A stretch of 64,000 nt of DNA, taken from Mariniflexile sp. AS56. GTDB lineage: Bacteria; Bacteroidota; Bacteroidia; Flavobacteriales; Flavobacteriaceae. Numbering within the stretch: the first letter of the stretch is position 1; the number at the start of each line of letters is the position of its first letter. Below the pieces are notes generated by a model. It saw nothing but the letters and a program-made list of their open reading frames with translations, did not search any database and had not been told where the DNA came from. Location of the stretch: assembly GCF_030552475.1 (NCBI RefSeq), contig NZ_JAUPED010000006.1, positions 62,001 through 126,000 on the forward strand, read 5' to 3'. The translations under genes were made by a program, and so were the position numbers. Positions 7,683 to 57,006 of the stretch are shown one piece after another.

Positions 7683-7738
7683 CAAAATTAGCAGGTTTAA
7701 TCGTTTAGGGTTTCTCAATTAAGGGGTTCAAATGTTAC
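7683..7738 (-). promoter_or_regulatory. Shared PUL promoter element, copy in front of susC (site A)
   Basis: Read on the minus strand, the box starts with GTAACATTTG at 7738. CCCCTTAATTGAGAAA follows at element positions 13-28. A TAATTTTG -7 element (TAnnTTTG type) lies at 7690-7683, exactly 48 bases after the box start. The susC ATG is 89 bases further on. A second TTAACATTTC lies just upstream and makes an 11-base direct repeat. Copies at 11264-11319 and 22917-22972 share sequence and spacing. I infer an activator site overlapping the -33 region, probably for the HTCS encoded here. Confidence 0.75.
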
Positions 7739-11263: not shown

Positions 11264-11319
11264 GTAACATATCACCCCCTTAATTGAGAAATTAAATTTC
11301 ATTAAACAACTTAAATTTG
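11264..11319 (+). promoter_or_regulatory. Shared PUL promoter element, copy in front of plus-strand unit 1 (site B)
   Basis: GTAACATATC starts at 11264. CCCCTTAATTGAGAAA occupies element positions 13-28, identical to site A over those 16 bases. TAAATTTG, a perfect TAnnTTTG, lies at 11312-11319, 48 bases after the box start. The sulfatase ATG is 131 bases downstream, leaving a leader of roughly 120 bases. This should drive the six-gene unit that ends at the terminator near 22845. Confidence 0.78.
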
Positions 11320-13026: not shown

Positions 13027-14463
13027 ATGGCTAAAATCAGAAACCTTATAAGCATCGGTATCCTTGCATGCTGTTTCAATACTAAGGTGATGGCATTTCA
13101 GAAAAACCAAGAAAAACCCAATATCATTTTCATTATGGCCGATGATTTGGGGTATGGCGATTTGGGCAGTTATGGACAAACAAAAATTAAAACGCCGCAT
13201 CTAGATAAAATGGCCTCTGAGGGTATGATTTTTACCAATCATTATGCCGGTTCTACGGTGTGTATGCCTTCCCGTGCCAGTTTACTAACAGGTTATGATC
13301 AAGGTCATGCCAGTGTGAGAGGGAATCCTATTTGGACGGAAAGTGGTAACCCTGTGAACCTTCAACGGAATGAAATTACAGTTGCTACCGAGCTTAAAAA
13401 AGTGGGATATAAAACAGCTATCATTGGGAAATGGGGGCTTTCTGAAGGTGTTACTAATGAGAATATGCCATCGGAACATGGTTTTGATTATTTTTTAGGG
13501 TACAAAGAACACCGTCATGCACATCATTATTACTGGGATACATTATACCGTAATAATGATGCTTTTATTTTAAAGGATAATAAGTACGCCTTAAAACAAG
13601 GTAAATACACACACGATGTTTTTGTAAACGAGGCATTGGCTTATGTGGAAAAGGAAAAGAACCATCCGTTTTTTCTGTACTTAGCACTAACAATTCCTCA
13701 TTTAGAATTAACGGTTCCTAAAGATTCCAAAGAACCTTATCAAAAATTAGGATGGCCTAAACGAAAAATGAATACCACAGGCCATTATAAAAATGATGAA
13801 GAAGGAAATACCGCATATGCTGGTATGGTCTCTCGAATGGATAGAGATTTAGGGCGCTTATTTGAGAAACTAAAGGCTCTAGGAATTGAAGATAACACCA
13901 TTATTTTCTTTACAAGTGATAATGGGCCTGAATATGAAAGATATGATAAATTCTTTAATAGCAACGGCGCATTAAAAGGAGGGAAAAGAGATTTATATGA
14001 TGGCGGAATACGTATCCCGTTTATAGTTAAGTATCCCGGTAAAATTGCTCCGGGTTCTAAAAGCAGTCACATCTCTGCTTTTTGGGATTTCTTACCAACC
14101 GTTTGTGAATTGGTTGGAGTGACACCTACTCATAACGACATAAACGGAATTTCTTTAGTACCAGAATTGATGGGAAATCAAAAGAAACAAAAAAAGCATG
14201 ACTATCTATACTGGGAGTTCAACGAAAAACAAGGACCTATTCAAGCCATTCGTAAAAACGATTGGAAATTGGTTTGGAAACTTGAAGGAAAACCAGAGTT
14301 ATACAATCTTTCTACTGATATAGGGGAAACCAAAAACCTTGCTTTGCAAGAACAAGATAAATTAAACGAAATGCTCACATTACTTAAAAAGATTAGGACA
14401 GAGCATAAAGAATTTCCTTTAACCACGAGGGAAATAGCACTAAGAAAGCGCCTTAATAATTAA
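13027..14463 (+). CDS. Formylglycine-dependent sulfatase (S1 family), GKWGL type
   Basis: Exported sulfatase of 478 residues. A signal peptide (to about residue 24) precedes DDLGYGD and CMPSR, with the formylglycine Cys at residue 79. The usual GKWHLG is replaced by GKWGLS, and EHRHAHHYYWDTLYRN follows. That combination is typical of S1_16-like sulfatases, a group that includes enzymes acting on 4-sulfated galactose-type sugars; the subfamily and position are inference. TSDNGPEY and a C-terminal subdomain (DWKLVWKLEGKPELYNL) complete the fold. It lies 44 bases after the first sulfatase, in the same operon. Confidence 0.95.
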   Translation: MAKIRNLISIGILACCFNTKVMAFQKNQEKPNIIFIMADDLGYGDLGSYGQTKIKTPHLDKMASEGMIFTNHYAGSTVCMPSRASLLTGYDQGHASVRGNPIWTESGNPVNLQRNEITVATELKKVGYKTAIIGKWGLSEGVTNENMPSEHGFDYFLGYKEHRHAHHYYWDTLYRNNDAFILKDNKYALKQGKYTHDVFVNEALAYVEKEKNHPFFLYLALTIPHLELTVPKDSKEPYQKLGWPKRKMNTTGHYKNDEEGNTAYAGMVSRMDRDLGRLFEKLKALGIEDNTIIFFTSDNGPEYERYDKFFNSNGALKGGKRDLYDGGIRIPFIVKYPGKIAPGSKSSHISAFWDFLPTVCELVGVTPTHNDINGISLVPELMGNQKKQKKHDYLYWEFNEKQGPIQAIRKNDWKLVWKLEGKPELYNLSTDIGETKNLALQEQDKLNEMLTLLKKIRTEHKEFPLTTREIALRKRLNN

Positions 14464-16745: not shown

Positions 16746-18923
16746 ATGAAAATTAAATTACTTTATGCATTCGCACTTTTTTGTGCTATGAATTCTTTTG
16801 CTCAAACGGATCCTTGCGGCACTAAAGTAGATGATACTTTCGAGGAAGCCGGAGCCTTGCCAAATGGCTGGACAGAATATAATACCTCGGGACGAGTAAC
16901 TGTTGAGGGAGGTAAACTGAAGTTTAACCACAATACCACGAAGCCTTCGGCGTATCGTACTTTCAGCCCAACTTCTAGCGATTTGTCTTTTTCTTTTGAT
17001 GTCTCTGCGTCACGTAATTCTGTGAATTGTCAAATTCACTTGGTGTCGTCAACAGGTAAATACTTATCTAGTATTGCCGTTGGGGTAGGACCAGCGACTA
17101 TAAAATATGCAACAACCATGGAAGGTGGCGTTCCTAGTGGTTTTATACCAGGAACACCTGAAGTAAGTTTTAAAACGAATACCGTTTATACGCTTTCTGC
17201 GCAAGTAGATTTTACTTCAAAAAAAGTAAATATTTACAGTAATGGTGAACTAATGGCAACTGATGTTCCTTTTTTAGAAACGGCAGAAGATGTTGCTGAA
17301 ATTGATATTCAGTTAATTTATATGTATTCCAATAATGGGCAATTCTATTTCGATAATATTTCCTTGATAAGTGGAGAGGCCAACAGATTACAATTAACTA
17401 GCAACGTAAATGCTGCAGAAAATTTAGTAGCATCTGCATCTATTGGCACTAGCTATAATCAATACCCACAATCTGCTGTTGATGCTTTTCAACTGGCAAT
17501 TGATGATGCTAATGCAGTACTTGCCAATTGCGATTCCGCTTCAAATACTATAGATACATCTATGTCAGATCTTCAAGCGGCTCAAGATATTTTAGATGGG
17601 TCTCGAGTAAATGATCCGGTTCTTAAAGTGTACGATGGTTTTAATTTTTCAGGTGAAGAACACGAAATATACTGTGGTTATTACAATGGTGGTTTAGGAG
17701 CCTATGAAGATTGGGCTGTTTCATTTACGCTTGAAAAAGGGTATATGGCAACGTTTGCTCAAGATGTGAATGGCTTAGGGGTTAGTAAAATATATATTGC
17801 TCAAGATCATGCTATTGAGATTAACTTGCCTGCAGATTTGCAGCGTTCTATTTCATTCATTCGTGTGAGTCCTTGGTTTCCTGTAGGTAAAAAAGGAAGT
17901 TTAGGAGGCGATATAAAATGGAGTTCGGCAGATAACTATAATACTACTTGGCATTATAACTGGGGCTTGGAATCGCCTAGTCAGAGCTCAGGAGTGCAAT
18001 TTGTTCCAATGGCGTGGAGTAAGTCTGATAATTGGACATCGCTTGAAAAGATGAAAGCAGTTGGGGAGAACATGTCCTTTAATAATCTCATGGCGTTTAA
18101 TGAACCGGATAACTCGGGACAATCGAACTTAACGGTAGAAGAGGCTTTGGATGCTTACCCTAAACTTTTGGCTTCTGGTCTTAGACTGGGTGCTCCTGGT
18201 GTTGAGAATGTACAATATAGTTCAACAAATGATTCGTTTAATGAAGATTCTTGGATTAAAGCATTTATGGACGGGTGTGTAGCACGTGGTTACCGTGTTG
18301 ATTTTATTCCAGCTCATGATTATGTGCGTCGTTCAAAGTCTAGCTTCTTGGAACGTTTTAAAGGTCTTCATGACCGATATAATCTTCCGATATGGGTAAC
18401 AGAATACAACTATGGAAACCCAAATATGGGGTCGGCAAATATTACAGTAGAACAAGGTTACACTAATATAAAGGGCTTAACTGAAGTTCTTGAAGGGGCA
18501 GATTTTGTTGAACGTTACAATTGGTATTATTTCTTTGGTGCAGCTTCCGGTATAGGCGGTATAACTGATGGCGAACTGAATATCACGGGGCAATTTTATC
18601 GAGACCTTGAATCACAAAATCCCTCATACATTCAAGAAGTGTATGCGCAAGGCCAATTAAGTACTTCCGATTTTGATAGAGATAAAGGGTTAAGCATTTC
18701 GCCAAACCCGGTTACAAAAGGTATAATTACGGTTAACTATAGAGACTCTTACTTCTCAAAAGATACTACAATTAGAATTTTTAATAGTTCAGGACAAGAA
18801 TTAAAAAAGTTAAATGATGCATCTAAACAAATTGATGTTTCTAAGTTCAGTAATGGCATTTATTTCATTCAGTTCATTTCTTCGGAAACAAATGTGACAA
18901 AAAAAATTATAGTTAATCAATAA
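16746..18923 (+). CDS. Secreted GH128-like glycoside hydrolase, copy 1, with T9SS tail
   Basis: Of 725 residues, the first 20 are a signal peptide. A beta-sandwich domain follows (about 22-215, DTFEEAGALPNGWTEYNTSG), then a helical FIVAR-like linker (about 220-290), a crystallin-like segment (about 295-385), and a catalytic core resembling PF11790/GH128 (about 400-640). In that core AFNEPDNSG gives acid/base Glu453 and PIWVTEYNYG gives nucleophile Glu553. A T9SS tail (SISPNPVTKG to KKIIVNQ) follows. Characterised GH128 enzymes are mostly endo-beta-1,3-glucanases, which does not fit the rest of this sulfatase-rich locus, so the substrate is open. It is a tandem paralog of the next gene. Confidence 0.82.
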   Translation: MKIKLLYAFALFCAMNSFAQTDPCGTKVDDTFEEAGALPNGWTEYNTSGRVTVEGGKLKFNHNTTKPSAYRTFSPTSSDLSFSFDVSASRNSVNCQIHLVSSTGKYLSSIAVGVGPATIKYATTMEGGVPSGFIPGTPEVSFKTNTVYTLSAQVDFTSKKVNIYSNGELMATDVPFLETAEDVAEIDIQLIYMYSNNGQFYFDNISLISGEANRLQLTSNVNAAENLVASASIGTSYNQYPQSAVDAFQLAIDDANAVLANCDSASNTIDTSMSDLQAAQDILDGSRVNDPVLKVYDGFNFSGEEHEIYCGYYNGGLGAYEDWAVSFTLEKGYMATFAQDVNGLGVSKIYIAQDHAIEINLPADLQRSISFIRVSPWFPVGKKGSLGGDIKWSSADNYNTTWHYNWGLESPSQSSGVQFVPMAWSKSDNWTSLEKMKAVGENMSFNNLMAFNEPDNSGQSNLTVEEALDAYPKLLASGLRLGAPGVENVQYSSTNDSFNEDSWIKAFMDGCVARGYRVDFIPAHDYVRRSKSSFLERFKGLHDRYNLPIWVTEYNYGNPNMGSANITVEQGYTNIKGLTEVLEGADFVERYNWYYFFGAASGIGGITDGELNITGQFYRDLESQNPSYIQEVYAQGQLSTSDFDRDKGLSISPNPVTKGIITVNYRDSYFSKDTTIRIFNSSGQELKKLNDASKQIDVSKFSNGIYFIQFISSETNVTKKIIVNQ

Positions 18924-18932
18924 GATCAGATT

Positions 18933-21068
18933 ATGAGAAAATTAAATACACTACTAATTATATTATTTTTTACCATCTCTGGTTTTGCTCAAACAACTAC
19001 CTGTGGTAGTGTTGTTGACGATACGTTTGAAGTGGACGGAGCTTTACCAAGTGGCTGGACCGAATACAACACCTCGGGGCGTGTTACTGTAGAGGGCGGT
19101 AATTTGAAATTTAACCACAATACCACCAAGCCTTCGGCGTATCGCACATTCAGTCCTACTTCTAATGATTTGGCCTTTTCTTTTGATGTATCTGCTTCAC
19201 GTAATTCTGTGAATTGTCAAATTCACTTGGTGTCATCAACAGGTAAATACTTATCTAGTATTGCTGTAGGTGTTGGACCAGCGACTATAAAATATGCTAC
19301 AATCATGGAAGGTGGCGTTCCTAGTGGTTTTATTCCTGGAACACCAGAAGTAAGTTTTAAAACGAATACCGTTTACACACTTTCTACTCAAGTTGATTTT
19401 ACAAATAAAAAAGTAAATATTTATAGTGACGGCATATTAATGGCGGCCGATATCCCTTTTTTAGAATTAGCCGAAGATGTTACTAAAATTGATATCCAAT
19501 TAATTTATATGTACGCCAATAATGGGCAATTCTATTTCGATAATATATCGATATTACGTGGAGAAGCCAACAGATTGCAATTAACGAGCAATGTGGCTGC
19601 TGCTGAAAATTTATTGGCATCTGCATCTATTGGAGATAGTTATAATCAATATCCACAGTCTGCTGTTGATGCTTTTCAATTGGAAATAAATGATGCTAAT
19701 ACGGTACTTTCAGATTGTGATTCTGCTTCAAATACCATTGACACGTCTATTTCAGACCTGCAAATAGCTCAAGATATTTTTGAAGGGTCTCGAGTAAATG
19801 ATCCAGTTCTTAAAATTTATGAGGCTTATAATTTTGCTGGTGAAGAACATGAAATGTATTGTGGTTACTATAATGGTGATTTAGGCGCTTATAATGATTG
19901 GGCAGTTTCTTTTACTTTAGAAAAAGGATATATGGTCACTTTTGCAGAAAATATAAACGGTACGGGAGTAAGTAAAGTATATATAGCCGCCGATACTGAT
20001 TTAGCAATTAATTTACCAGCAACTTTACAAAAGAAAGCCTCTTTCATTCGTGTTTCGCCATGGTTTAATGTGCAAAAGAAAGGAATGGCTGGAAAAGGTA
20101 CAGATGTTATAGTTGAGTTTGATAATTCGTGGCATTATAACTGGAGTATTTCAGGTTCAGATGTGGGTGATGCCAAATTTGTTCCAAATCAATGGAGTGG
20201 AGGTTCTGTTGCTAACGCAATAAGTTTAGGTAATAGAATGGACATCTCACATTATATGTCTTTTAACGAACCCGATGGATCAGAGCAAGCAAATATGACC
20301 GTAGATAGAGCTATTGAAAAATATGAAGATATGCTCGCTTCTGGTTTACGTTTAGGTTCACCAGCAAATAAAGATAATGCAAAAGGAGGCGTATGGCGTG
20401 ATGAATTTATGACCAAAGCTGAAGCTGCAGGATATCGTGTAGACTACATTGTAGTTCATTATTATAAAAAAACCTCACCTGCAAATTTTTACAATTGGTT
20501 GAAAGCTATTCATGATAAATGGCAACGTCCTATCTGGATTAAGGAATTTAATTATGGAGCAACTTGGACCGATCAACCTGCTTCAAATGAGGCAGCAAGA
20601 GATGGGTTGCAATCTTATATGAATATGTTAGATAACACTAGTTTTATAGAGCGTTATGCTGTATTTACTTGGCAACCAGATAAACCGGTTTATTCTTTAA
20701 TGACTGTTCGTAATCCAGTAACCTTAAGTAGTTCTGGCATCATGTATAGAGATCATACATCACCATTAGCTTACAGTCAGGAGTCCTATGCACAAGGCGA
20801 ACAACTATCTGTAAATAACAATGCGATGTCAACGCATGTTTTGGTTTCAAAAACAGTAGTGTCAAATGGTTTTTTAAATTTGATTTATTCAGATGAAATC
20901 AAAAACAGTAGAATAGAACTTAGTATTTACAACACCTCAGGGCAGCTTGTAAATAAGGTGTCTGACTCTAGTACTGAAATAAATGTTAACCGCTTGTCTA
21001 GTGGTTTATATATTGTTAAAATAGAATCTAGTTTGGGGGTTTTTACTAAAAAATTTATAATTCAATAA
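18933..21068 (+). CDS. Secreted GH128-like glycoside hydrolase, copy 2, with T9SS tail
   Basis: Has the same architecture as the preceding gene in 711 residues: signal peptide, beta-sandwich, FIVAR-like helices, crystallin-like segment, GH128-like core and T9SS tail. The likely acid/base is Glu446 in SFNEPDGSEQ and the nucleophile Glu538 in PIWIKEFNYG. The N-terminal 200 residues are nearly identical to copy 1, with long shared DNA stretches around 17041-17190 and 19227-19376. The catalytic halves differ clearly (HYYKKTSPANF against HDYVRRSKSSF). It starts 9 bases after copy 1 ends. The pattern fits duplication followed by catalytic divergence, possibly to cut a different linkage or sulfation pattern. 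Confidence 0.82.
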   Translation: MRKLNTLLIILFFTISGFAQTTTCGSVVDDTFEVDGALPSGWTEYNTSGRVTVEGGNLKFNHNTTKPSAYRTFSPTSNDLAFSFDVSASRNSVNCQIHLVSSTGKYLSSIAVGVGPATIKYATIMEGGVPSGFIPGTPEVSFKTNTVYTLSTQVDFTNKKVNIYSDGILMAADIPFLELAEDVTKIDIQLIYMYANNGQFYFDNISILRGEANRLQLTSNVAAAENLLASASIGDSYNQYPQSAVDAFQLEINDANTVLSDCDSASNTIDTSISDLQIAQDIFEGSRVNDPVLKIYEAYNFAGEEHEMYCGYYNGDLGAYNDWAVSFTLEKGYMVTFAENINGTGVSKVYIAADTDLAINLPATLQKKASFIRVSPWFNVQKKGMAGKGTDVIVEFDNSWHYNWSISGSDVGDAKFVPNQWSGGSVANAISLGNRMDISHYMSFNEPDGSEQANMTVDRAIEKYEDMLASGLRLGSPANKDNAKGGVWRDEFMTKAEAAGYRVDYIVVHYYKKTSPANFYNWLKAIHDKWQRPIWIKEFNYGATWTDQPASNEAARDGLQSYMNMLDNTSFIERYAVFTWQPDKPVYSLMTVRNPVTLSSSGIMYRDHTSPLAYSQESYAQGEQLSVNNNAMSTHVLVSKTVVSNGFLNLIYSDEIKNSRIELSIYNTSGQLVNKVSDSSTEINVNRLSSGLYIVKIESSLGVFTKKFIIQ

Positions 21069-21132
21069 GGTTTACGTTTATAAAAGAACAGGACAAGATC
21101 TAAAGTGGATTTAAAGTGTGAAAACCAACAAA

Positions 21133-22791
21133 ATGAAATTAATTAAAATGATGAAAAGATTACATGTGAATAAAATTAAAATAATAGGTATTGTTTTAAT
21201 TTTAGGTTGCTTCAATTTTAAGGCATTTAGCCAGACTATTTATACCAACGACATGGATTATGTTTTAGGAGACACAAAGCAACGCTTCATTACAGGGGCA
21301 GTGACAACACAAGCGCAGGCAGATAATTTGTTAACGGGATTTAAGACTATGAAGGTAAATGGAATACGTATTCCTATTTTTCCAATAGGTGAGAACCCAG
21401 AACCAGCTATAATGGACTATTTTTTCGAACAAGCTCTTGCTCAAGGGTTTCCTGTTTTTGCGAATCCAGCACAAGATTCTGGGGCACGTAGAATAGCGAG
21501 TGGTTCTCTAAAAAGCGCAGATTTAATTACAACCAGAGACAATCCGAATGCAACCGCAACCGTTATTAATGTGGTTTCTCAATTTGCATTAGACCACCCA
21601 GGACTTAAATGGATTAATCCCTTTAATGAAGATGGAAAACCTGGAGATGCTTGGAGTGCAGCGCAAATGAATGCGATCTATAGTGGCGTTAAAGCAAACA
21701 TGGAATCGTATTTTGCTAACGGCCAAATTCCAAATGTTCCTGAGTTAATAGGGCCATGTGTTTGGGGGCTTCCAGCGTCTATATTAGTAATGGAACAAAC
21801 CAATATCGGTGAATATATTACTGTGGCATCAAGCCATAATTTAGGTTTTAATCACGGGAGGTGGCCCGATTTTATTGCCTTAGCAAATGCGAATACAACT
21901 GGAGGTGTTTCCAATCCTTTACCTGTTTGGGATTCTGAAGTGAATAACAGTAATAATGGAGGTCTTTCACGAATTGATGCGGCAATAGCAAATGAAGTAG
22001 ATGGCTTAGTTATATACAATTCTGGGAATACCATTAATATCAATAATGGAAAAATAGGCGACCTTAATGAAGTCTATATGTCTAAGTATTTAAAGCCATT
22101 TGTTAACCTTGCACTTACTGGTACAGCTACACAGTCATCAACAAATCCAAGTTGGAATATGGAGGCTTCTCGTGCCATTGATGGTGATATTGCAGGGAGC
22201 TTTTCGGGGGGAAACGGATCGATTTCATTAACAAGTAGTGAAACAAACCCTTGGTGGCAGCTAGATCTCGGTTCTAATACAGAAATAGGATCTATTAAAG
22301 TATTTAATAGATCGGATGGATGTTGTAAAGCCAATATGTCTAATTTTACAGTGACAGTCACAAACACTAGTGGTGCAGAAGTTTTTTCTGAAACTTTCAC
22401 AGATTTTCCAGATCAAGCACAGGTAGTTGAAACAGGTAATGTAACTGGTAGAATTGTTAAAATTCAATTAAATGCAACAGCGGCCTTAGCAATAGCAGAA
22501 GTACAAGTTTTTGCTCCAGAATCACAATTATCCATAGCTGATTATAGTGAAGGTGTTGAAGTAAGGGTCTATCCAAATCCGGCTTCCGATAGTGTTACGG
22601 TGGCAGCACCTATATCCATATATAATCAATATGAAGTATTCAACATTAATGGACAGAAAATGTTAAGTCATAAAATTTCAAACGATGCGTCTGAAATAGT
22701 GATTGACTTAGGTGAGCTATCCAAAGGTATTTATATATTAAAATTAATGGGAGCGGAATCTTCTAAAATCCATAAGCTTATTAAGAATTAG
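21133..22791 (+). CDS. Secreted clan GH-A-like protein with F5/8C (F-type lectin-like) module and T9SS tail, copy 1
   Basis: Opens at GTG 21118, but the ATG at 21133 (MKLIKMM) gives a more normal signal peptide and is preferred. The mature protein begins near SQTIYTNDMDY. A TIM-barrel-like domain (about 35-320) has Glu at NPFNEDG (Glu166 from this start) and at VWDSEVNN (Glu269), placed as an acid/base and nucleophile pair. An F5/8-type C module follows (about 325-455, ASRAIDG, NPWWQLDLG, NRSDGCCK), then a T9SS tail (VYPNPASD to KLIKN). I do not recognise a CAZy family for the catalytic domain. It is the last gene of unit 1, paralogous to 23108-24745. Confidence 0.8.
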   Translation: MKLIKMMKRLHVNKIKIIGIVLILGCFNFKAFSQTIYTNDMDYVLGDTKQRFITGAVTTQAQADNLLTGFKTMKVNGIRIPIFPIGENPEPAIMDYFFEQALAQGFPVFANPAQDSGARRIASGSLKSADLITTRDNPNATATVINVVSQFALDHPGLKWINPFNEDGKPGDAWSAAQMNAIYSGVKANMESYFANGQIPNVPELIGPCVWGLPASILVMEQTNIGEYITVASSHNLGFNHGRWPDFIALANANTTGGVSNPLPVWDSEVNNSNNGGLSRIDAAIANEVDGLVIYNSGNTININNGKIGDLNEVYMSKYLKPFVNLALTGTATQSSTNPSWNMEASRAIDGDIAGSFSGGNGSISLTSSETNPWWQLDLGSNTEIGSIKVFNRSDGCCKANMSNFTVTVTNTSGAEVFSETFTDFPDQAQVVETGNVTGRIVKIQLNATAALAIAEVQVFAPESQLSIADYSEGVEVRVYPNPASDSVTVAAPISIYNQYEVFNINGQKMLSHKISNDASEIVIDLGELSKGIYILKLMGAESSKIHKLIKN

Positions 22792-22828
22792 TTTTAAGAG
22801 AACGTCTATTTACTAGTACACAATTAAC

Positions 22829-22861
22829 AAAGCAGCATCTATCATGGATGCTGCTTTTTTT
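22829..22861 (+). terminator. Intrinsic terminator of plus-strand unit 1
   Basis: AGCAGCATC (22831-22839) pairs with GATGCTGCT (22847-22855) across a 7-base loop, extended by A-T pairs and followed by a run of T to 22861. It lies 40 bases after the stop of the clan GH-A protein and 56 bases before promoter element C, so it divides the plus-strand cluster into two transcription units. Confidence 0.85.
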
Positions 22862-22916
22862 GTTTGAGTAGGATTCTATGTTATTAGCTTGAATTCAATA
22901 AGAAAGCAATGGTTTA

Positions 22917-22972
22917 GCAACAAATTGACTCCATAATTGAGAATTTAGAAAGCTCTGAAAATGTTTACTTTG
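22917..22972 (+). promoter_or_regulatory. Shared PUL promoter element, copy in front of plus-strand unit 2 (site C)
   Basis: Starts GCAACAAATT at 22917, with CTCCATAATTGAGAA at element positions 13-27 and TTACTTTG at 22965-22972. The TTTG is in exactly the same register as in sites A, B and E. The -7 element is imperfect in its first two bases (TT for TA). The next ATG is 136 bases downstream. It would serve the 17 plus-strand genes from 23108 to 51940, unless weaker internal promoters exist. Confidence 0.7.
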
Positions 22973-22986
22973 TGTTAAAGAGCTAA

Positions 22987-23026
22987 AACACCTATTTTCC
23001 TATTTAAAAAAACGGAAAAGGGTGTT
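22987..23026 (+). other. Stem-loop in the 5' leader of unit 2
   Basis: AACACC (22987-22992) plus TTTTCC (22995-23000) can pair with GGAAAA (23014-23019) plus GGTGTT (23021-23026), with a small internal bulge and a 13-base A-rich loop. It sits about 10-15 bases after the predicted transcription start of site C. No T run follows at once, so it looks like a leader stability element, not a terminator. The rest of 22792-23107 shows only the terminator and promoter element already listed. Confidence 0.45.
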
Positions 23027-23107
23027 TGTAAAATGAGTAGTTCGATGTTTTAAGTTGGTCAAAACCGATTAAAAACAGACCTCAAAGTTCACTTAAATTT
23101 CAGAAAA

Positions 23108-24745
23108 ATGAGAATAGAAAATTACACAAAAAGTATTAAAGTTATTTTATTTGCCTTGGTAACGGGATGTCTTAGTTTTAACTCGTTTAGCCAAACTATT
23201 TATACTAATGATATGGATTATGTGCTAGGTGATACAAAGCAAGCATTTATTACAAATCAAATTACAACCATAGAAAAAGCAGATAATTTACTTAAAGGTT
23301 TTGCTAAATTGAAGGTAAACGGTATTCGTATCCCGCTTTTTGGAAGAGGTGTTGATGGTGTCGATCTTAATCCTAACAAATCAATGATGGATTATTTTTA
23401 TAATCAAGCCTTGGCTCAAGGTTTTGATATTTTTGCAAACCCTGCCCAAGGAGGTGGAGGCCATAGAGTAGCAAATAATAGACTTAATGGAAATGGTTCT
23501 AATGAAGGTGCAGAGTCATCTGTAAATGGTGTTCAAGCTGCAACCGATGAATTGGTTAATAGAGTCATACAATTTTCAAATCAATATCCAGGATGTAAAT
23601 GGATAAATCCATTTAATGAGGATGGAAGGGCAACTAATAGTACTTGGAGTATCAGTCAAATCAATGAAATATATCAAAGACTTTATAATCATGGTGTAAA
23701 CGGTGCAGAATTAATAGGACCTTGTACTTGGGGGCTTCCTGCGGGAATTGACATGTTGCAGAATACTGCTATTGCAGATTATATTACTGTTGCAGCAACC
23801 CATAATTTAGGTTTTAATCATAACCAATGGTCTAGCTTTATAGCTTTGGCTAAGGCTGAAGGTTTTCCTGTTTGGGATTCTGAAGTGAACCATAATGATG
23901 CAAAAGATAACGGAACACGATTAGAAAAAGCCATTGAGAATAAAGTTGACGGCTTGGTTTTATACAATTCATGGAATACCATTAGTTTAACCGATGGGTC
24001 TATAAACCCAGCGGCACAAAATCAAATGCTTTTATACCTAAAAGACTATACGATACCCGTTAATATCGCAGTTAACGGTACAGCATCACAATCATCAACA
24101 AATCATGATTGGAATATGGAAGCGTCTCGTGCAATTGATGGAAATACTGCAGGTAGCTTTGCATCTGGAAACGGATCTATTTCACTTACCAATGTTGAAG
24201 AAAATCCTTGGTGGCAAGTTGACCTTGGAGCGAATAAAAGAATAGATGATATTAAAATTTTTAATAGAACAGATTCTTGCTGTAAAAATAGAATGTCGGA
24301 TTTCACGGTATATGTTATCGATGCTAGCGGAACAACTACCTTTTCTAAAACATATACAATAGCTCCAGATCCTTCGGTTGTAGTTAATGCAGGTAATGTT
24401 CAAGGGCAAATTATTAGAATACAGTTAAATTCAAATAACGCCTTAGCTTTAGCAGAGGTACAAGTTTACGAAGCAGAAGCAGGTTTGTCTGTTAATGATA
24501 AAGAAACGATTCCTGTTTCTGTGTACCCGAATCCAGTTTCCGATATCTTTAAGGTGGCAGCACCCATAGCGACATTCAACCAATTTGAAATCTATAACAT
24601 TAGCGGACAACAAATTTTAAGTGGTAACATTTCTAATAGTGCTAGAGTATTTGAGGTTAATTTAAGTGCTTTTTCTAAAGGGATTTATGTGTTGAAATTA
24701 CAAGGTGATCAAGTTTCAAGAACATTAAAAGTTATTAAAAAATAA
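23108..24745 (+). CDS. Secreted clan GH-A-like protein with F5/8C (F-type lectin-like) module and T9SS tail, copy 2
   Basis: 545 residues, paralogous to the gene at 21133-22791 along its whole length. It has a signal peptide to about residue 29 and a TIM-barrel-like domain (about 30-315) with Glu171 in NPFNEDGRA and Glu259 in VWDSEVNHN as the probable catalytic pair. The F5/8C module (about 320-450) includes SSTNHDWNMEASRAIDGN, NPWWQVDLG and NRTDSCCKNR. A T9SS tail runs from VYPNPVSD to KVIKK. Short of a family name, I read it as a surface or extracellular glycosidase, perhaps endo-acting. It opens unit 2 behind promoter element C, so the two paralogs are controlled by separate copies of the same element. 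Confidence 0.8.
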   Translation: MRIENYTKSIKVILFALVTGCLSFNSFSQTIYTNDMDYVLGDTKQAFITNQITTIEKADNLLKGFAKLKVNGIRIPLFGRGVDGVDLNPNKSMMDYFYNQALAQGFDIFANPAQGGGGHRVANNRLNGNGSNEGAESSVNGVQAATDELVNRVIQFSNQYPGCKWINPFNEDGRATNSTWSISQINEIYQRLYNHGVNGAELIGPCTWGLPAGIDMLQNTAIADYITVAATHNLGFNHNQWSSFIALAKAEGFPVWDSEVNHNDAKDNGTRLEKAIENKVDGLVLYNSWNTISLTDGSINPAAQNQMLLYLKDYTIPVNIAVNGTASQSSTNHDWNMEASRAIDGNTAGSFASGNGSISLTNVEENPWWQVDLGANKRIDDIKIFNRTDSCCKNRMSDFTVYVIDASGTTTFSKTYTIAPDPSVVVNAGNVQGQIIRIQLNSNNALALAEVQVYEAEAGLSVNDKETIPVSVYPNPVSDIFKVAAPIATFNQFEIYNISGQQILSGNISNSARVFEVNLSAFSKGIYVLKLQGDQVSRTLKVIKK

Positions 24746-24762
24746 AGGTTTATATCGGAATA

Positions 24763-27366
24763 ATGTATTTAAAAAAACTAGTTTCATTAGTTGTTGTTAG
24801 CCTTTGTTTTCAACTAGTAGTCGCTCAAAATAATCAAGGAATTATACATGTTGACACAAAAAATGGTCATGAGATTAAAGTGGGCTCTAGCGGATTTAAT
24901 GTGCGTATTGCAGATAAAAGTTGGAGTTTTCTGCATCCAGATTTTAGGCAAGTCGTACATGAATTAAAACCAGGGTGGCTTCGTTATTTTTCTGGCACCA
25001 TGGGTGATGCTTTTAGCAGTGCTACAGGGCAGTATGATATGGATTATGCCATGATGTTCGACCATCCAAAACAGTACCTTAAAGGCTATAGGTTTACTGA
25101 AATTAAAGGTCCGCACCGCATCATCGATTTATATGATTTACTAAGTGAAATTAATGGGAAATTAATCATAACAATCAATGGTTTTTCCGAAACACCAGAA
25201 ATGACTTATGAGTTGGCCCGTTTTTGTAAAAACAATAATATAGAAGTCGCTACATGGCAATTTTGCAACGAACCCTATTTTTATGTGCCTCACAGAGAAC
25301 GCTATTGGTGGAATAACGGGTACGATTACGCTGCAAAAATGAAACCTCATGCCGATGCTATTAAAAAGGTATATCCAGACGCTTTTCTGGCATTAAATAA
25401 TACTTGGGATGGTATTTGGGGCTTTATGAAAGAAATTAATAGCTACCAAAAAGAGCAAGGAGCTTATTGGAATGTATTTTCTAAACATTCGTACGCACCA
25501 CATACAGGTAAAAAGGAGTCCGTAGAAAGCGCTTATAAAAGAGCCAACACCAAATTATTAGAAGCTACGTCTCCTGCTGCTATGCAGGAAATTGAAGCGT
25601 ACGCATCCAAAGATATCCCAATGGTTATTACCGAATTTGGAGTTTGGAACGCACCCTTAAACGGAATCTATTCAAGTATTTATAATATTGAATACGTGAT
25701 GCGCCAATTACAACATACAAATACGTGGTATGTAGGCGCGCATGAAGTTAGTAGTAAATATGCCCCAAAAAAGAATATTAATAATGAGATAGAAGCTGCT
25801 TTTAAAAACGGCACAACACTTAATACCGATAGTATTTTAACAGGTATAAACAGAACTTTGGAAGGGAAAGCCTATGAAATTTACCATAAGGTCACGAACC
25901 ATTCCGATTATATTTTCGACTCTAGTATTACAAGTGCTTTTAAGGCTCCAGGGCTAAAAAACGCTGTTGAAACGGGCTGCTTCACACAAGCTTACCGTGG
26001 TATAAATGGTTATGATTATCTAGTATTTACCAACAGAACCAATCAATCTAAAGATTTTGAAATTGTAATTGATGGTGTGCCGCTAAATAAAAAAATAGAG
26101 GTAAGTTATATTACAGCCGATTCCATAGAGGTTGAAAACACCGAAATTAAACAGTCCAGCTTCAATTCAGGTAAAATTAACATTCCTGCCTTTAGTGTCT
26201 CTGTAGCAAAATGGGCTTCCAAATTGGTAACCAAACCTGCTGTTCCAACTATTTATAAAGGCGAAGTGCTTGCTAAAAGCATCAAATTAACTTGGGGAGC
26301 TATTGAAAATGTACAACATTACACCCTTTTTTATGGTGAAGATGCTAAAAATTTAAATAAGACAATTAAGATTGAAGGTGCTTCCGTAAACACAATCGAG
26401 ATTAATAATTTGAATACTAACGCGACTTATTATTTTAAAATGAGTGCAGAGAACGAACAAGGTGTAAGTCCGTTTTCAAATGAAATTAATATAAAAAACA
26501 GTATTCCTGAAACACCTGAAATTTTTAAAATATCAAGAAGAAATACAACAGCTACCATTTTTTGGAAAAGTGTTGCAAATACATCGGGTTATACGCTTAA
26601 ATATTTAAATGAAACATCAGGACAAGAAACTTTAGTGGAAACCAATAATGTGTATGGTTATAGGGTTGAAGGTTTGGAATATGATGTTCCTTATCAATTT
26701 TCTGTAGCAGCGAATAATGGGCTTGGTCGTGGGCAGTTTTCAAAAGTAAATACACTTGTTTTATCTGAAAAGGTTCCGTTTAGTCCAAGAAATGTATCGG
26801 CCATTAAAGCTGAAGATGGTAGTGTATCTGTAAAATGGCTTGCCCAAGATTCCATCCATCCGGAAACGACTTACAATGTGTATAGAGGGAAAGAACTTCA
26901 TAAGTATCAAAAAATAGCAGAAGGAATTAAAACAACCTTTTATAAAGATACTTCAGTAGAAAATGATCAGGTTTATTTCTATACCGTAAAAGCGGAAACA
27001 TCTGCTGGTGAAAGTAATTTTTATCCGAATACTGCAACTTTATTAAGTTTTGAGGATGAATTCGCAATCGATATTCAGTCGGTTAAAAAAGAAAACGATG
27101 GCTTTTTGTTTAAAGTCGCTTTTCAAAATATTCTGTTAGATGGAGACTATTCATACGGACTCAAAATAGAGAATATATCCTATTTAACGGTTGAAGAACA
27201 ATTGGTTCATGGTCGAGACTTGTCGCATAATTCAAAAACGTTTGAGGTCTTTGTACCCAATTCAGATTTGGCTAAAAAATCAAAATACGCGATTAAGGCG
27301 TTTATAAACACCAATGGGAAAAGCCTTTTTAGTAAGTTGCCAAATAAGAGTATTCAGACAGATTAA
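24763..27366 (+). CDS. Clan GH-A-like glycoside hydrolase with three fibronectin type III repeats
   Basis: 867 residues with a signal peptide to about residue 21. The N-terminal TIM-barrel domain (about 25-350) has WQFCNEPYFYV (Glu170, likely acid/base) and PMVITEFGVWN (Glu291, likely nucleophile), an arrangement as in GH39/GH51/GH79-type enzymes. A small beta domain follows (about 390-490), then three FN3-like repeats beginning near 495, 580 and 680, and a C-terminal domain of about 100 residues. There is no clear T9SS tail. It starts 17 bases after the previous stop. I cannot assign a CAZy family; an agarase-like or other endo-glycosidase role is possible but unproven. Confidence 0.75.
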   Translation: MYLKKLVSLVVVSLCFQLVVAQNNQGIIHVDTKNGHEIKVGSSGFNVRIADKSWSFLHPDFRQVVHELKPGWLRYFSGTMGDAFSSATGQYDMDYAMMFDHPKQYLKGYRFTEIKGPHRIIDLYDLLSEINGKLIITINGFSETPEMTYELARFCKNNNIEVATWQFCNEPYFYVPHRERYWWNNGYDYAAKMKPHADAIKKVYPDAFLALNNTWDGIWGFMKEINSYQKEQGAYWNVFSKHSYAPHTGKKESVESAYKRANTKLLEATSPAAMQEIEAYASKDIPMVITEFGVWNAPLNGIYSSIYNIEYVMRQLQHTNTWYVGAHEVSSKYAPKKNINNEIEAAFKNGTTLNTDSILTGINRTLEGKAYEIYHKVTNHSDYIFDSSITSAFKAPGLKNAVETGCFTQAYRGINGYDYLVFTNRTNQSKDFEIVIDGVPLNKKIEVSYITADSIEVENTEIKQSSFNSGKINIPAFSVSVAKWASKLVTKPAVPTIYKGEVLAKSIKLTWGAIENVQHYTLFYGEDAKNLNKTIKIEGASVNTIEINNLNTNATYYFKMSAENEQGVSPFSNEINIKNSIPETPEIFKISRRNTTATIFWKSVANTSGYTLKYLNETSGQETLVETNNVYGYRVEGLEYDVPYQFSVAANNGLGRGQFSKVNTLVLSEKVPFSPRNVSAIKAEDGSVSVKWLAQDSIHPETTYNVYRGKELHKYQKIAEGIKTTFYKDTSVENDQVYFYTVKAETSAGESNFYPNTATLLSFEDEFAIDIQSVKKENDGFLFKVAFQNILLDGDYSYGLKIENISYLTVEEQLVHGRDLSHNSKTFEVFVPNSDLAKKSKYAIKAFINTNGKSLFSKLPNKSIQTD

Positions 27367-55441: not shown

Positions 55442-56947
55442 TTACTGGCTCACCATCACTTTATTGGTGTACACTTGCTGTCCATTCGATACTGAAATAA
55501 TATACATACCAGAAACCAATGGGTGATTTAATAATAGAATTGGCTCAAAATTTCGGATGTCATTGTAAATCTCTTTTCCATCGACGGTATACATTTTTAT
55601 GATAATTTTATCGGAAGGATTACTATTAGGGATTTTTATTTGAAAACGACCATTAGCGGACGGATTTGGGATGATTTTTATTTCTTGATTATTAAATGAG
55701 ACTTTACTAGTACTTAAAATAGACTTATTTAAAGTGATTTTAAGATGTGAGTACGAGGTTGCTGGCACCACAATGTTCCAGTTGGAAGCGTTTGTTATTG
55801 GGTATGTGGATGCTGTTCCCGTATCGGTAGAAGTCCAAAGCTTTCTATTAACAATACCATCACCCATATAATTGTTTAATAATTGTAAATCGACGGTGTT
55901 TTCTGTGGTGTTCTTGTTTATAATGTGGACATCGAGCGTCGATTCATTTCCAAAAACAACCAATTTAATATTGCTATTATTAGAGGTAGAGCTAATAACT
56001 TGACCTTCCGCATTATTTACTATGTTTTTAAAACCACTATATTTAACAGGGAGAGCACTTCCATTGGCATATACAAAACGTTTACAAACTTGATAGAAAA
56101 TAACGCCTTCAGCACCACCTCTAATAGGTGCAAAAATATTATCAATACCAGCGATAAGAAGCCCTATGCCGTCTCCCGTGGAATATCTAGTCGCTTCTGT
56201 ATACCAAACGGGATCTTCTGATTTTGCTACTAATGATGCCCATGTACTATCCCAATCAGATTCAGCGATAGATCCATCATCATAAAAATGAGATCCTACG
56301 ATGGCTACGCGGTCTTCAATATCATCGACAGAATTTACAGCAGCTGAAAGGGCATAACTTTCAACACCAACCATTTCAGTGCTTCCTAACTTAGTCATCT
56401 GATTAATAATTTTTAAATAATCAGAATCATCACCTGGATCTTCATTATAAGGTGCTAAATAATCAACGGTAATTCCGGCATCGGTCATGCGTTGCATAAA
56501 ACTATCTAAATATGCTGAATAGGTGGTAAGGTTTAGACTGTAAACATTATAAGCACAACACCCTGTCCAAGAAGCTGGGAATTTTTCAGCATTATGATAA
56601 TTTATACCATAGCCATCACCATTCGCAACACTGGCAAAAATTTTAACATCTGGATTGTAGCTTTTTACAGAGTTTATAACTGTAATAACATTATCATAAA
56701 TATTATCGGTTATGGGTTGTAAAGCAAATATGGGCACTCTTAGTATTTGTAGATTCATATCTTGAAATAACTTGGCAGATACGCTATTGGTATTGCCTTC
56801 AGCCCAAGCTTTAATGGTTAATTTGTTATCGCCTCCAAAAACAACACTTTGGTTAGGTAATGTGGGGTCTATCGTAATAATATCTGATTGTGCATTTACG
56901 GATAAACAAAAAAGAAACAGTATTTTGAGAAGTAGTAGTTTTTTCAT
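55442..56947 (-). CDS. Secreted GH30-like glycoside hydrolase with T9SS tail
   Basis: The frame opens at 56971, but that ATG lies inside a perfect hairpin stem; the ATG at 56947 (MKKLLLLKI) gives a clean signal peptide and is preferred, 501 residues. A TIM barrel (about 25-320) has APYNEDPGD (Glu169, likely acid/base) and VWYTEATRY (Glu251, likely nucleophile). A beta-sandwich (about 325-410, NSNIKLVVFGNESTLDVHIINK) is as in GH30. A T9SS tail closes it (IIPNPSANG to KVMVSQ). GH30 includes endo-xylanases, glucanases and galactanases, so a surface endo-cut on the main chain is plausible here. The subfamily is not recognisable. Confidence 0.85.
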   Translation of the reverse strand: MKKLLLLKILFLFCLSVNAQSDIITIDPTLPNQSVVFGGDNKLTIKAWAEGNTNSVSAKLFQDMNLQILRVPIFALQPITDNIYDNVITVINSVKSYNPDVKIFASVANGDGYGINYHNAEKFPASWTGCCAYNVYSLNLTTYSAYLDSFMQRMTDAGITVDYLAPYNEDPGDDSDYLKIINQMTKLGSTEMVGVESYALSAAVNSVDDIEDRVAIVGSHFYDDGSIAESDWDSTWASLVAKSEDPVWYTEATRYSTGDGIGLLIAGIDNIFAPIRGGAEGVIFYQVCKRFVYANGSALPVKYSGFKNIVNNAEGQVISSTSNNSNIKLVVFGNESTLDVHIINKNTTENTVDLQLLNNYMGDGIVNRKLWTSTDTGTASTYPITNASNWNIVVPATSYSHLKITLNKSILSTSKVSFNNQEIKIIPNPSANGRFQIKIPNSNPSDKIIIKMYTVDGKEIYNDIRNFEPILLLNHPLVSGMYIISVSNGQQVYTNKVMVSQ

Positions 56948-56966
56948 TTTTGAGACAATTTTAAGT

Positions 56967-57006
56967 AACAAAGGAGTGATTAATAACTATAAATCACTCC
57001 TTTGTT
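56967..57006 (-). other. Perfect 15-base stem-loop between two secreted-protein genes
   Basis: CAAAGGAGTGATT (56969-56981) and AATCACTCCTTTG (56992-57004) are exact complements with a 10-base loop; two more A-T pairs extend the stem at each end. It sits between the LamG gene stop (57029) and the GH30-like ATG (56947). Only TTACTT follows on the minus strand, so it is weak as a terminator and could instead cap the upstream message and lower expression of the downstream gene. Confidence 0.7.

What the first reader, a model, noticed from the sequence alone, without database searches (positions are those of the whole stretch)
21133..24745. Paralogous pair of unassigned clan GH-A-like enzymes carrying F5/8C modules
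Both proteins share a barrel starting TIYTNDMDY, with Glu at NPFNEDG and at VWDSEVN, placed like an acid/base and nucleophile. I do not recognise a family. They are secreted by T9SS and each lies under a different copy of the shared promoter (unit 1 end, unit 2 start). Among the gene products here they are good candidates for a new endo-acting family.
Basis: partly seen in the sequence, partly recalled or inferred. Interest (0 to 1): 0.68.

Follow-up and report, generated by a model that had tools for sequence, protein, structure and literature searches.

The report
Unassigned sugar-cutting barrel enzyme pair
Two neighbouring genes of a marine bacterium encode secreted enzymes with the barrel and glutamate pair of a large group of sugar-cutting enzymes, but they match no family in the databases held here, so they are a concrete lead for a new enzyme acting on sulfated algal polysaccharides.

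Summary
Two genes (21133-22791, 23108-24745, +) encode proteins 53% identical along their length: signal-like start, ~285-aa N-terminal domain, F5/8C module, type IX sorting tail. The N-terminal domain matches no Pfam, NCBIfam or PDB-sequence family. Models of both paralogues (pLDDT 88 and 95) are (beta/alpha)8 barrels. Most of their best structural matches are clan GH-A glycosidases, and no family stands out. Asn-Glu follows strand 4 and a second Glu ends strand 7, the GH-A acid/base and nucleophile positions; both are kept in all 41 members found, two of which fit neither letter pattern used in the scan. The domain is rare (6 of 397 genomes of the window's family, its own included), occurs in four phyla with varied binding modules, and lies near sulfatases in 27 of 33 loci. 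Most likely it is a retaining GH-A glycosidase, probably endo-acting on a beta-linked stretch of a sulfated, fucose-containing polysaccharide. Endo action, substrate and CAZy status are untested. The F5/8C module resembles F-type lectins but lacks the fucose-site His in 13 of 13.

The parts
21133..22791 (+). First paralogue, 552 aa from the ATG at 21133 (557 aa from GTG 21118): signal-like start, GH-A-like barrel, F5/8C module, T9SS tail
21229..22101 (+). Barrel domain of the first paralogue (291 aa; model pLDDT 95.4, pTM 0.93)
21628..21630 (+). Glu166 (barrel residue 134), proposed acid/base, in Asn-Glu-Asp after strand 4
21937..21939 (+). Glu269 (barrel residue 237), proposed nucleophile, end of strand 7
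22126..22476 (+). F5/8C module of the first paralogue, F-type-lectin-like, without the fucose-triad His
22567..22782 (+). Por_Secre_tail (T9SS sorting domain) of the first paralogue
22829..22857 (+). Intrinsic terminator-like hairpin with T-tract between the two genes
22929..22944 (+). Weak copy (3 mismatches) of the element found exactly at 7711-7726 (-) and 11276-11291 (+)
23108..24745 (+). Second paralogue, 545 aa, same architecture
23189..24052 (+). Barrel domain of the second paralogue (288 aa; model pLDDT 88.1, pTM 0.89)
23618..23620 (+). Glu171 (barrel residue 144), proposed acid/base, in Asn-Glu-Asp after strand 4
23882..23884 (+). Glu259 (barrel residue 232), proposed nucleophile, end of strand 7
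24083..24439 (+). F5/8C module of the second paralogue, F-type-lectin-like, without the fucose-triad His
24521..24733 (+). Por_Secre_tail of the second paralogue

Best explanation
The two genes encode secreted glycoside hydrolases whose N-terminal domain forms a family of its own within the clan GH-A fold. The barrel (predicted) holds the substrate. The Glu after strand 4 (Glu166 / Glu171) most likely acts as acid/base and the Glu at the end of strand 7 (Glu269 / Glu259) as nucleophile, so cleavage would proceed with retention through a glycosyl-enzyme intermediate (inferred from the clan). The proteins leave the cell by the type IX system (inferred from the sorting tail) and are held near the polymer by a lectin-like F5/8C module (inferred). 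They most likely cut a beta-linked (equatorial) bond inside a sulfated, fucose-containing heteropolysaccharide. Nearby sulfatases, GH29/GH95, GH97, GH2, GH43-like enzymes and SusC/D would finish and import the pieces (inferred from the locus). The two paralogues are an old pair with probably complementary specificities.
For: Fold: two confident models; most structural hits are GH-A enzymes. Active site: of 37 columns invariant in 39 members the only two Glu are those in NED and WDSE. All 41 members have both, including 20 that do not fit the scan's first letter pattern, 4 that do not fit the second, and 2 that fit neither. Family status: no Pfam model over the domain in 39 of 39, no credible NCBIfam model, no PDB sequence below E 0.27 with a 39-row profile. 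Modularity: the same domain occurs alone or with F5/8C (13 of 39), ricin-B (5), LamG (2) or other modules. Context: an ORF similar to a window sulfatase in 27 of 33 loci; with one locus per genome, 48 such ORFs in 532 kb against about 10 expected from the genome-wide density of first-look candidates. The CAZyme set fits the published description of fucose-containing sulfated polysaccharide loci (PMC6298971, section 16 read).
Against: No activity data exist. The fold servers do not say which residues superpose, so the Glu positions rest on strand order, not on coordinates; in the second model strand 4 is only two residues long (128-129). Not every structural hit is GH-A: 1 of the 50 listed Foldseek rows and 6 of 50 (from rank 15 on) are other barrels. 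CAZy models were not available. A GH-A barrel could be exo-acting. The F5/8C modules lack the His of the fucose-binding triad in 13 of 13, so they do not point to fucose. The nearest solved sulfatases to one conserved neighbour are not fucoidan enzymes: two entries named arylsulfatase and N-acetylgalactosamine-6-sulfatase, then a kappa-carrageenan sulfatase.
Confidence: 0.7

Rival explanations
1. The domain already has a CAZy GH number or a characterised member in print that is not represented in Pfam, NCBIfam or the PDB, so it is only a further member of a known GH-A family.
For: CAZy reaches at least GH195 (PMC13063451, passages), and recent families may lack a Pfam model (general knowledge). 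One carrier, Wenyingzhuangia aestuarii, belongs to a species from which new GH families have been described (PMC11943901, passages).
Against: Seven literature searches listed no paper that I recognised as describing such a protein, but I saw listings and passages only, only open-licence papers are held, and a sequence cannot be searched for. Profile searches of PDB sequences gave nothing credible.
Confidence: 0.25
2. The enzymes are GH-A hydrolases that work on chain ends or on released oligosaccharides, not within the polymer.
For: The GH-A clan holds both endo and exo enzymes (general knowledge). Eight of 39 members end within one residue of the barrel, so they lack a T9SS tail and a C-terminal binding module.
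Against: Both window proteins and in all 18 of 39 members carry Por_Secre_tail, and many carry binding modules, which suits action on polymer outside the cell. Families that are mostly exo-acting (GH29, GH95, GH97, GH2, GH116) are present separately in the locus.
Confidence: 0.25
3. They are endo-alpha-L-fucanases, i.e. functional counterparts of GH107/GH168/GH174/GH187.
For: The locus has GH29, GH95 and nine sulfatases. Carriers include Tamlana fucoidanivorans and Wenyingzhuangia aestuarii. The F5/8C module is F-type-lectin-like.
Against: From general knowledge, clan GH-A enzymes cut equatorial bonds, while alpha-L-fucosides in their usual chair are axial. The module lacks the fucose-triad His in 13 of 13.
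Confidence: 0.1
4. The barrel is not hydrolytic: a binding or scaffolding domain, or another enzyme class on a TIM barrel.
For: TIM barrels serve many enzyme classes. Among 50 listed Foldseek rows, one search has L-galactose dehydrogenase, and one search has a GH20 hexosaminidase (rank 15), methylthioalkylmalate synthase, two pyruvate kinases and two GH13 enzymes.
Against: The highest-ranked hits are GH-A glycosidases in both models, and the two invariant Glu sit at the GH-A catalytic positions.
Confidence: 0.05

Closest known systems
Clan GH-A as a whole (GH113, GH5, GH30, GH39, GH53 structures)
   Same: (beta/alpha)8 barrel, Asn-Glu after strand 4, Glu at the end of strand 7, invariant Arg in strand 2 and His at the end of strand 6; listed VIA rows Z 16.7-19.8 over 236-264 residues
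   Different: Identity only 7-16% in those alignments; no family stands out (50 rows within about 2 Z units in each list); no PDB sequence match
GH113 beta-mannanases (5yli, 4cd6, 3civ)
   Same: Best structural row for both models: 5yli Z 18.8 (rmsd 3.5 A, 244 residues) and 19.8 (3.3 A, 242 residues)
   Different: 10-13% identity for these three, no sequence-level match, and no GH26- or GH92-type Pfam match in the window that would suggest a mannan pathway
GH30 (XynC-type, 3kl0) and the B. fragilis protein 3clw
   Same: XynC is the top Foldseek row for the second model; 3clw has Z 17.8 (4.0 A) and 19.3 (3.6 A) over 264 residues
   Different: Eight of 39 members end within one residue of the barrel, so the beta-structure that accompanies GH30 barrels (recalled) is not part of this family; no Pfam GH30 match in any of 39
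L032:15182-17341 (720 aa, Marinilabilia rubra), L093 (Verrucomicrobiota bin) and L031:9633-12065, unnamed proteins
   Same: Distant sequence kin over strands 4-7 with NE or KE and a second Glu aligned: L032 E 9.6e-7 and L093 E 1.4e-6 for a whole genome, L032 hhalign E 4e-5, alignments
   Different: Match covers only about 100-116 of 273 positions; L031 is weaker (E 4e-5 against a small ORF set, hhalign E 0.0016, not listed at E 0.001). L032 and L031 have no Pfam family over that part
Endo-fucanase families GH107, GH168, GH174, GH187
   Same: Similar setting: GH29/GH95 and sulfatases in marine Bacteroidota
   Different: Different reaction expected. FunA (GH168) relies on D206 and E264, 58 residues apart (PMC7401878, passages); here two Glu lie 88 (23108 gene) or 103 (21133 gene) residues apart. 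No sequences of these families were available for a direct test
F-type lectins / CBM47 (FBP32, Anguilla agglutinin)
   Same: The C-terminal modules match them at E 1e-18 to 1e-8 and share the Arg, mostly the Asp, and the Cys-Cys pair
   Different: The His of the fucose-binding triad is missing in 13 of 13, and one residue is inserted before the Cys pair in 12 of 13 (motif from PMC5712786, passages)

Membership tests
Clan GH-A | (beta/alpha)8 barrel | tested here: met
   First model: eight strands and eight helices in alternation, pLDDT 88.1. Second model, pLDDT 95.4: the same order, but strand 4 is only two residues long in DSSP. GH-A enzymes top Foldseek and VIA lists
Clan GH-A | Acid/base Glu preceded by Asn at the end of strand 4, nucleophile Glu at the end of strand 7 | tested here: met
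   By strand order in the models and presence in 41 of 41 members; not by superposed coordinates. That these positions define the clan is recalled
Clan GH-A | Retaining mechanism on equatorial glycosides | not testable with these tools
   needs kinetics / NMR
A named family in Pfam or NCBIfam | Match above the curated cut-off over the barrel domain | tested here: not met
   0 of 39 members in Pfam at E 0.001; in NCBIfam five families with one member each, best E 0.012
A family with a solved structure (by sequence) | Significant sequence or profile match to a PDB chain over the barrel | tested here: not met
   phmmer (all rows lie in the F5/8C or tail regions); profile searches (none; one row, E 0.27, a BLUF protein)
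Any CAZy GH family | Match to CAZy/dbCAN family models | not testable with these tools
   No CAZy library on hand
GH113 | Sequence similarity to GH113 beta-mannanases | tested here: not met
   GH113 structures are in the PDB, yet the profile finds none at E up to 10; only the fold is shared
GH30 | Barrel with accompanying beta-structure (recalled) and GH30 Pfam match | tested here: not met
   No Pfam GH30 model in 39 members; eight members end within one residue of the barrel
GH168 / GH174 / GH187 / GH107 endo-fucanases | Sequence similarity to the founding enzymes | not tested
   Founding sequences were not retrieved here
F-type lectin / CBM47 | Sequence similarity | tested here: met
   PDB phmmer hits to FBP32 and fucolectins
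F-type lectin / CBM47 | Fucose-binding triad His...Arg.Asp....Arg/Lys | tested here: not met
   His absent 25 and 27 residues before the Arg in 13 of 13; the Arg and Cys-Cys were used to locate the site, so their presence is by construction
Type IX secretion cargo | C-terminal sorting domain | tested here: met
   Por_Secre_tail above cut-off in both
FCSP-type polysaccharide utilisation locus | GH29 and GH95 with GH43, GH2, GH97 and sulfatases beside SusC/D | tested here: met
   Pfam of the window genes against the description in PMC6298971; GH117, also named there, was not identified; one of the two GH43-like proteins is below the Pfam cut-off

The most novel reading that the evidence does not exclude
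The pair belongs to an unrecognised glycoside hydrolase family of clan GH-A that spans four bacterial phyla and supplies the endo-cleavage of a beta-linked part of a sulfated, fucose-containing algal polysaccharide for which no endo-enzyme is known.
Probability: 0.45. Interest if true: 0.65.

Novelty: new variant of a known kind. Interest (0 to 1): 0.52.

Why it matters
Sulfated fucose-containing polysaccharides are broken down slowly and matter for marine carbon storage (abstract of PMC12786026, seen), and enzymes that open their chains are the scarce tool. A coherent family with exact catalytic-residue predictions, short stand-alone members (310-333 aa) that should be easy to express, and a conserved sulfatase neighbourhood makes the question directly testable. 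It is nonetheless one of many candidate GH families in such loci, not a new kind of chemistry.

Tried and rejected
A recent tandem duplication was rejected: in the tree the first gene forms a clade of four (100/100) with one copy each of Flavicella, Polaribacter Hel1_85 and an uncultured Polaribacter. The second sits in a clade of nine (100/100), ten with a Carboxylicivirga protein (96/85). The duplication is therefore older than the spread of these loci; whole-locus transfer is not excluded.

That the F5/8C module proves fucose binding was rejected, since the triad His is missing in 13 of 13 (one of the 13, L021, has a His elsewhere within 40 residues upstream).

Close kinship with other barrels of the window was tested. 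hhalign of the family profile with the PF11790 protein at 16746 (E 0.066) and the 867-aa protein at 24763 (E 0.25) gave nothing. The 443-aa neighbour in Tamlana (L047:10974-12302) gave E 0.005 at 7% probability and is not counted as kin, though its own Pfam match is GH59 at 27.8 bits.

The plasmid collection holds no relative. A sample of 395 genomes of the window's phylum gave only the window's genome. GH168-, GH174- and GH187-type structures were not seen among the listed rows of the fold searches; that absence proves nothing.

Bias told: the 33 loci were collected with two letter patterns that contain PFNE and PVWDSE, so the invariance of those letters is partly by construction. The nine proteins of A1 (two from the window, seven) and the two found were not collected that way. 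Of 41 members, 21 fit the first pattern, 37 the second, 19 both and 2 neither. From, three weak matches (38.9, 29.5 and 28.8 bits) were left out of the count of 41. The 33 loci come from 27 genomes and some overlap (L018/L030, L019/L028, L026/L039). The Planctomycetota and several other rows are metagenome bins, whose label may be wrong.

The sulfatase control is rough. The background is the number of first-look candidates (2628 over 134.7 Mb; most genomes stopped scoring at 57-58), which should overstate it. The local count (48 in 532 kb) takes only ORFs of at least 150 aa similar to the window's own sulfatases. 24 of 27 loci exceed their own expectation.
Full report
OBSERVATION. For the first, an in-frame GTG at 21118 is an alternative start. 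The proteins are 53% identical with 69% positives over 559 aligned columns. Pfam sees an F5/8C module and a Por_Secre_tail in each and nothing over the N-terminal ~320 residues. The starts look like signal peptides by eye (a basic stretch, a hydrophobic stretch, then FSQ). phmmer against PDB sequences matches only the F5/8C modules (FBP32, fucolectins and others) and the tail region.

FAMILY. A similarity search of 299 genomes of the window's family found the N-terminal domain in 5, and a profile search of 397 found it in 6, the window's own genome included both times. A sample of 395 genomes of the phylum gave only the window's own. A scan of a collection of 84,980 species genomes with letter patterns from nine aligned domains (A1) returned 33 loci from 27 genomes. 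Such a scan gives a lower bound. By record title, 15 of the 27 are Flavobacteriaceae; the rest are Marinilabiliaceae, Reichenbachiellaceae, Cyclobacteriaceae, a Bacteroidales bin, Pontiellaceae, Opitutaceae and another Verrucomicrobiota bin, and one Planctomycetota bin. Together with the window this gave 39 distinct proteins. A profile search of the same 27 genomes gave 39 strong matches, of which two were new, and three weak ones, so 41 members are known here.

NO NAMED FAMILY IN WHAT COULD BE SEARCHED. None of 39 members has a Pfam match over the domain at E 0.001. NCBIfam gives five scattered single-member hits, best E 0.012. The 39-row profile finds no PDB sequence better than E 0.27; the nine-row one finds none up to E 10. 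CAZy itself was not available, so 'unassigned' means unassigned in these libraries. Seven literature searches listed no paper that I recognised as describing such a protein; only open-licence papers are held, and I read passages or one section, never a whole paper.

FOLD. The barrel of the 23108 gene was predicted with 9 rows (pLDDT 88.1, pTM 0.89) and that of the 21133 gene with 39 rows (pLDDT 95.4, pTM 0.93). Both show the order of strands and helices of a (beta/alpha)8 barrel; in the second model strand 4 is only two residues long. Most listed Foldseek rows are clan GH-A glycosidases (family names partly from titles, partly recalled). Clear exceptions are 1 of 50 rows (an L-galactose dehydrogenase) and 6 of 50 (a GH20 enzyme at rank 15, methylthioalkylmalate synthase, two pyruvate kinases, two GH13 enzymes). 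VIA-align 2 gives Z 18.8 (rmsd 3.5 A, 244 residues) and Z 19.8 (3.3 A, 242 residues) for GH113 5yli. 3clw (Z 17.8, 4.0 A, and 19.3, 3.6 A, both 264 residues), GH5, GH30 and others follow within about 2 units, with Cwp19 of C. difficile, which I do not count as GH-A, among them. No family stands out, and identities are 7-16%. A shared fold alone shows no function.

ACTIVE SITE. In the second the same residues are Asn133-Glu134, His203-Asn204 and Glu237. In protein numbering these Glu are 171 and 259 (23108 gene) and 166 and 269 (21133 gene). Among 37 columns invariant in 39 proteins, the only two Glu are these. Because the scan's patterns contained PFNE and PVWDSE, this is partly built in. However, all 41 members have NED and WDSE, including 20 that do not fit the first pattern, 4 that do not fit the second, and two (L091, L092) that fit neither.

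KIN. Two proteins give weak but real similarity to the family profile over strands 4-7: L032:15182-17341 (E 9.6e-7 for its genome) and a frame in L093 (E 1.4e-6). The first is supported by hhalign at E 4e-5, probability 70%. A third, L031:9633-12065, is weaker (E 4e-5 against a small ORF set; hhalign E 0.0016; not listed at E 0.001). L032 and L031 lack a Pfam family there. The family may thus be one branch of a wider unassigned GH-A-like group.

MODULES. Of 39 members, 13 carry F5/8C, 5 ricin-type, 2 LamG, 2 a C92 peptidase-like domain and 18 a Por_Secre_tail. Eight end within one residue of the barrel. The barrel is the only common part, as expected of the catalytic unit. The F5/8C modules resemble F-type lectins (Arg, mostly Asp, Cys-Cys) but have no His 25 or 27 residues before the Arg in 13 of 13 (motif read in passages of PMC5712786), so the ligand is open.

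LOCUS. The window holds two SusC-like proteins (one cut by the window's edge) and a SusD, GH2, a pair of PF11790 proteins, an 867-aa protein, GH97, GH116, two GH43-like proteins, GH29, GH95, a GH36-like protein (PF05691), DUF6786, esterase-like proteins, nine sulfatases and a hybrid two-component regulator. ORFs similar to the window's sulfatases lie in 27 of 33 fetched loci, SusC-type in 13, GH29 in 9, GH97 in 9, GH2 in 8 and the regulator in 8. In one locus per genome there are 48 sulfatase ORFs in 532 kb, against about 10 expected from the genome-wide number of first-look candidates. This set fits the description of fucose-containing sulfated polysaccharide loci: GH29, GH95, GH117, GH43, and GH2, 3, 31, 97, with xylofucoglucans or -glucuronans named as possible substrates (PMC6298971, section 16); GH117 was not identified here. 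The closest solved structures to the sulfatase at 13027 are entries named arylsulfatase (7an1) and N-acetylgalactosamine-6-sulfatase (7ana), then a kappa-carrageenan sulfatase, so galactose sulfate is also possible.

OPERON AND PAIR. A 13-pair hairpin with a T-tract follows the first gene (22829-22857), and the second gene starts 316 bases after the first ends. In the tree the first gene's clade has four members, each from a genome that also has a member of the second gene's clade. The pair is old and kept together, which suggests complementary roles.

MECHANISM. Shown by computation: sorting tail, predicted barrel, conserved Glu pair, modularity, locus. Inferred: secretion, retaining hydrolysis, endo action, beta-linked target. 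The GH-A clan acts on equatorial bonds (general knowledge), which speaks against a pure alpha-L-fucan backbone and for a beta-linked part of a fucosylated, sulfated polymer.

VERDICT.

Noticed in passing
24763-27366: The 867-aa protein directly after the pair has three fn3 repeats but no Pfam match over its first ~500 residues and no PDB match for residues 20-496. It contains CNEP and ITEF stretches like another unassigned GH-A enzyme, and homologues occur in 7 of 33 loci.
   Followed up: partly
16746-18923 and 18933-21068; L031:9633-12065: The two PF11790 proteins share an N-terminal ~200-aa module (EYNTSGRVTV...) by eye with an 811-aa protein of a Bacteroidales bin whose later part is weakly similar to the finding's family: probable module shuffling within such loci.
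   Followed up: partly
L041:9803-11404 and L046:8657-10165: Two of 39 members match a C92 papain-like amidase domain (PF05708); from the C-terminal sequences these appear to be the Verrucomicrobiota and Planctomycetota bins, an odd partner for a polysaccharide hydrolase.
   Followed up: no
L018:9911-13246, L020:9887-13208, L024:9941-12743: In three related loci the two paralogues stand in the opposite order to the window, with gaps of only about 16-70 bases.
   Followed up: no
L092 (same genome as L029, Marinoscillum furvescens): A third family copy in this genome lies inside a 1726-aa open frame and has the lowest score of the 39 strong matches (324 bits).
   Followed up: partly
G785 contig C1, 588235-588384 (same genome as L032): A short stretch matching the last ~50 positions of the family profile with one stop inside (38.9 bits): probably the remnant of another copy.
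   Followed up: no
L047:10974-12302 and L045:10969-12291: A 441-443-aa neighbour of the family gene has IDNEF and WSTEP stretches and, for L047, a marginal GH59 match (27.8 against a cut-off of 27 bits): possibly another unassigned GH-A enzyme.
   Followed up: partly
55442-56971: A 509-aa protein whose only Pfam match is a sub-threshold T9SS tail; a 56% identical stretch lies in the Marinilabilia rubra locus L032.
   Followed up: no
G000 contig C23, about 203-275 kb: The window's genome has a second cluster of open frames (848-1121 aa) with regions 37-49% identical to the F5/8C part of the pair.
   Followed up: no
7711-7726 (-) and 11276-11291 (+): A 28-base element (GTAACATnTnAnCCCCTTAATTGAGAAA) stands before both the SusC gene and the gene at 11450, a possible site of the locus regulator.
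   Followed up: partly
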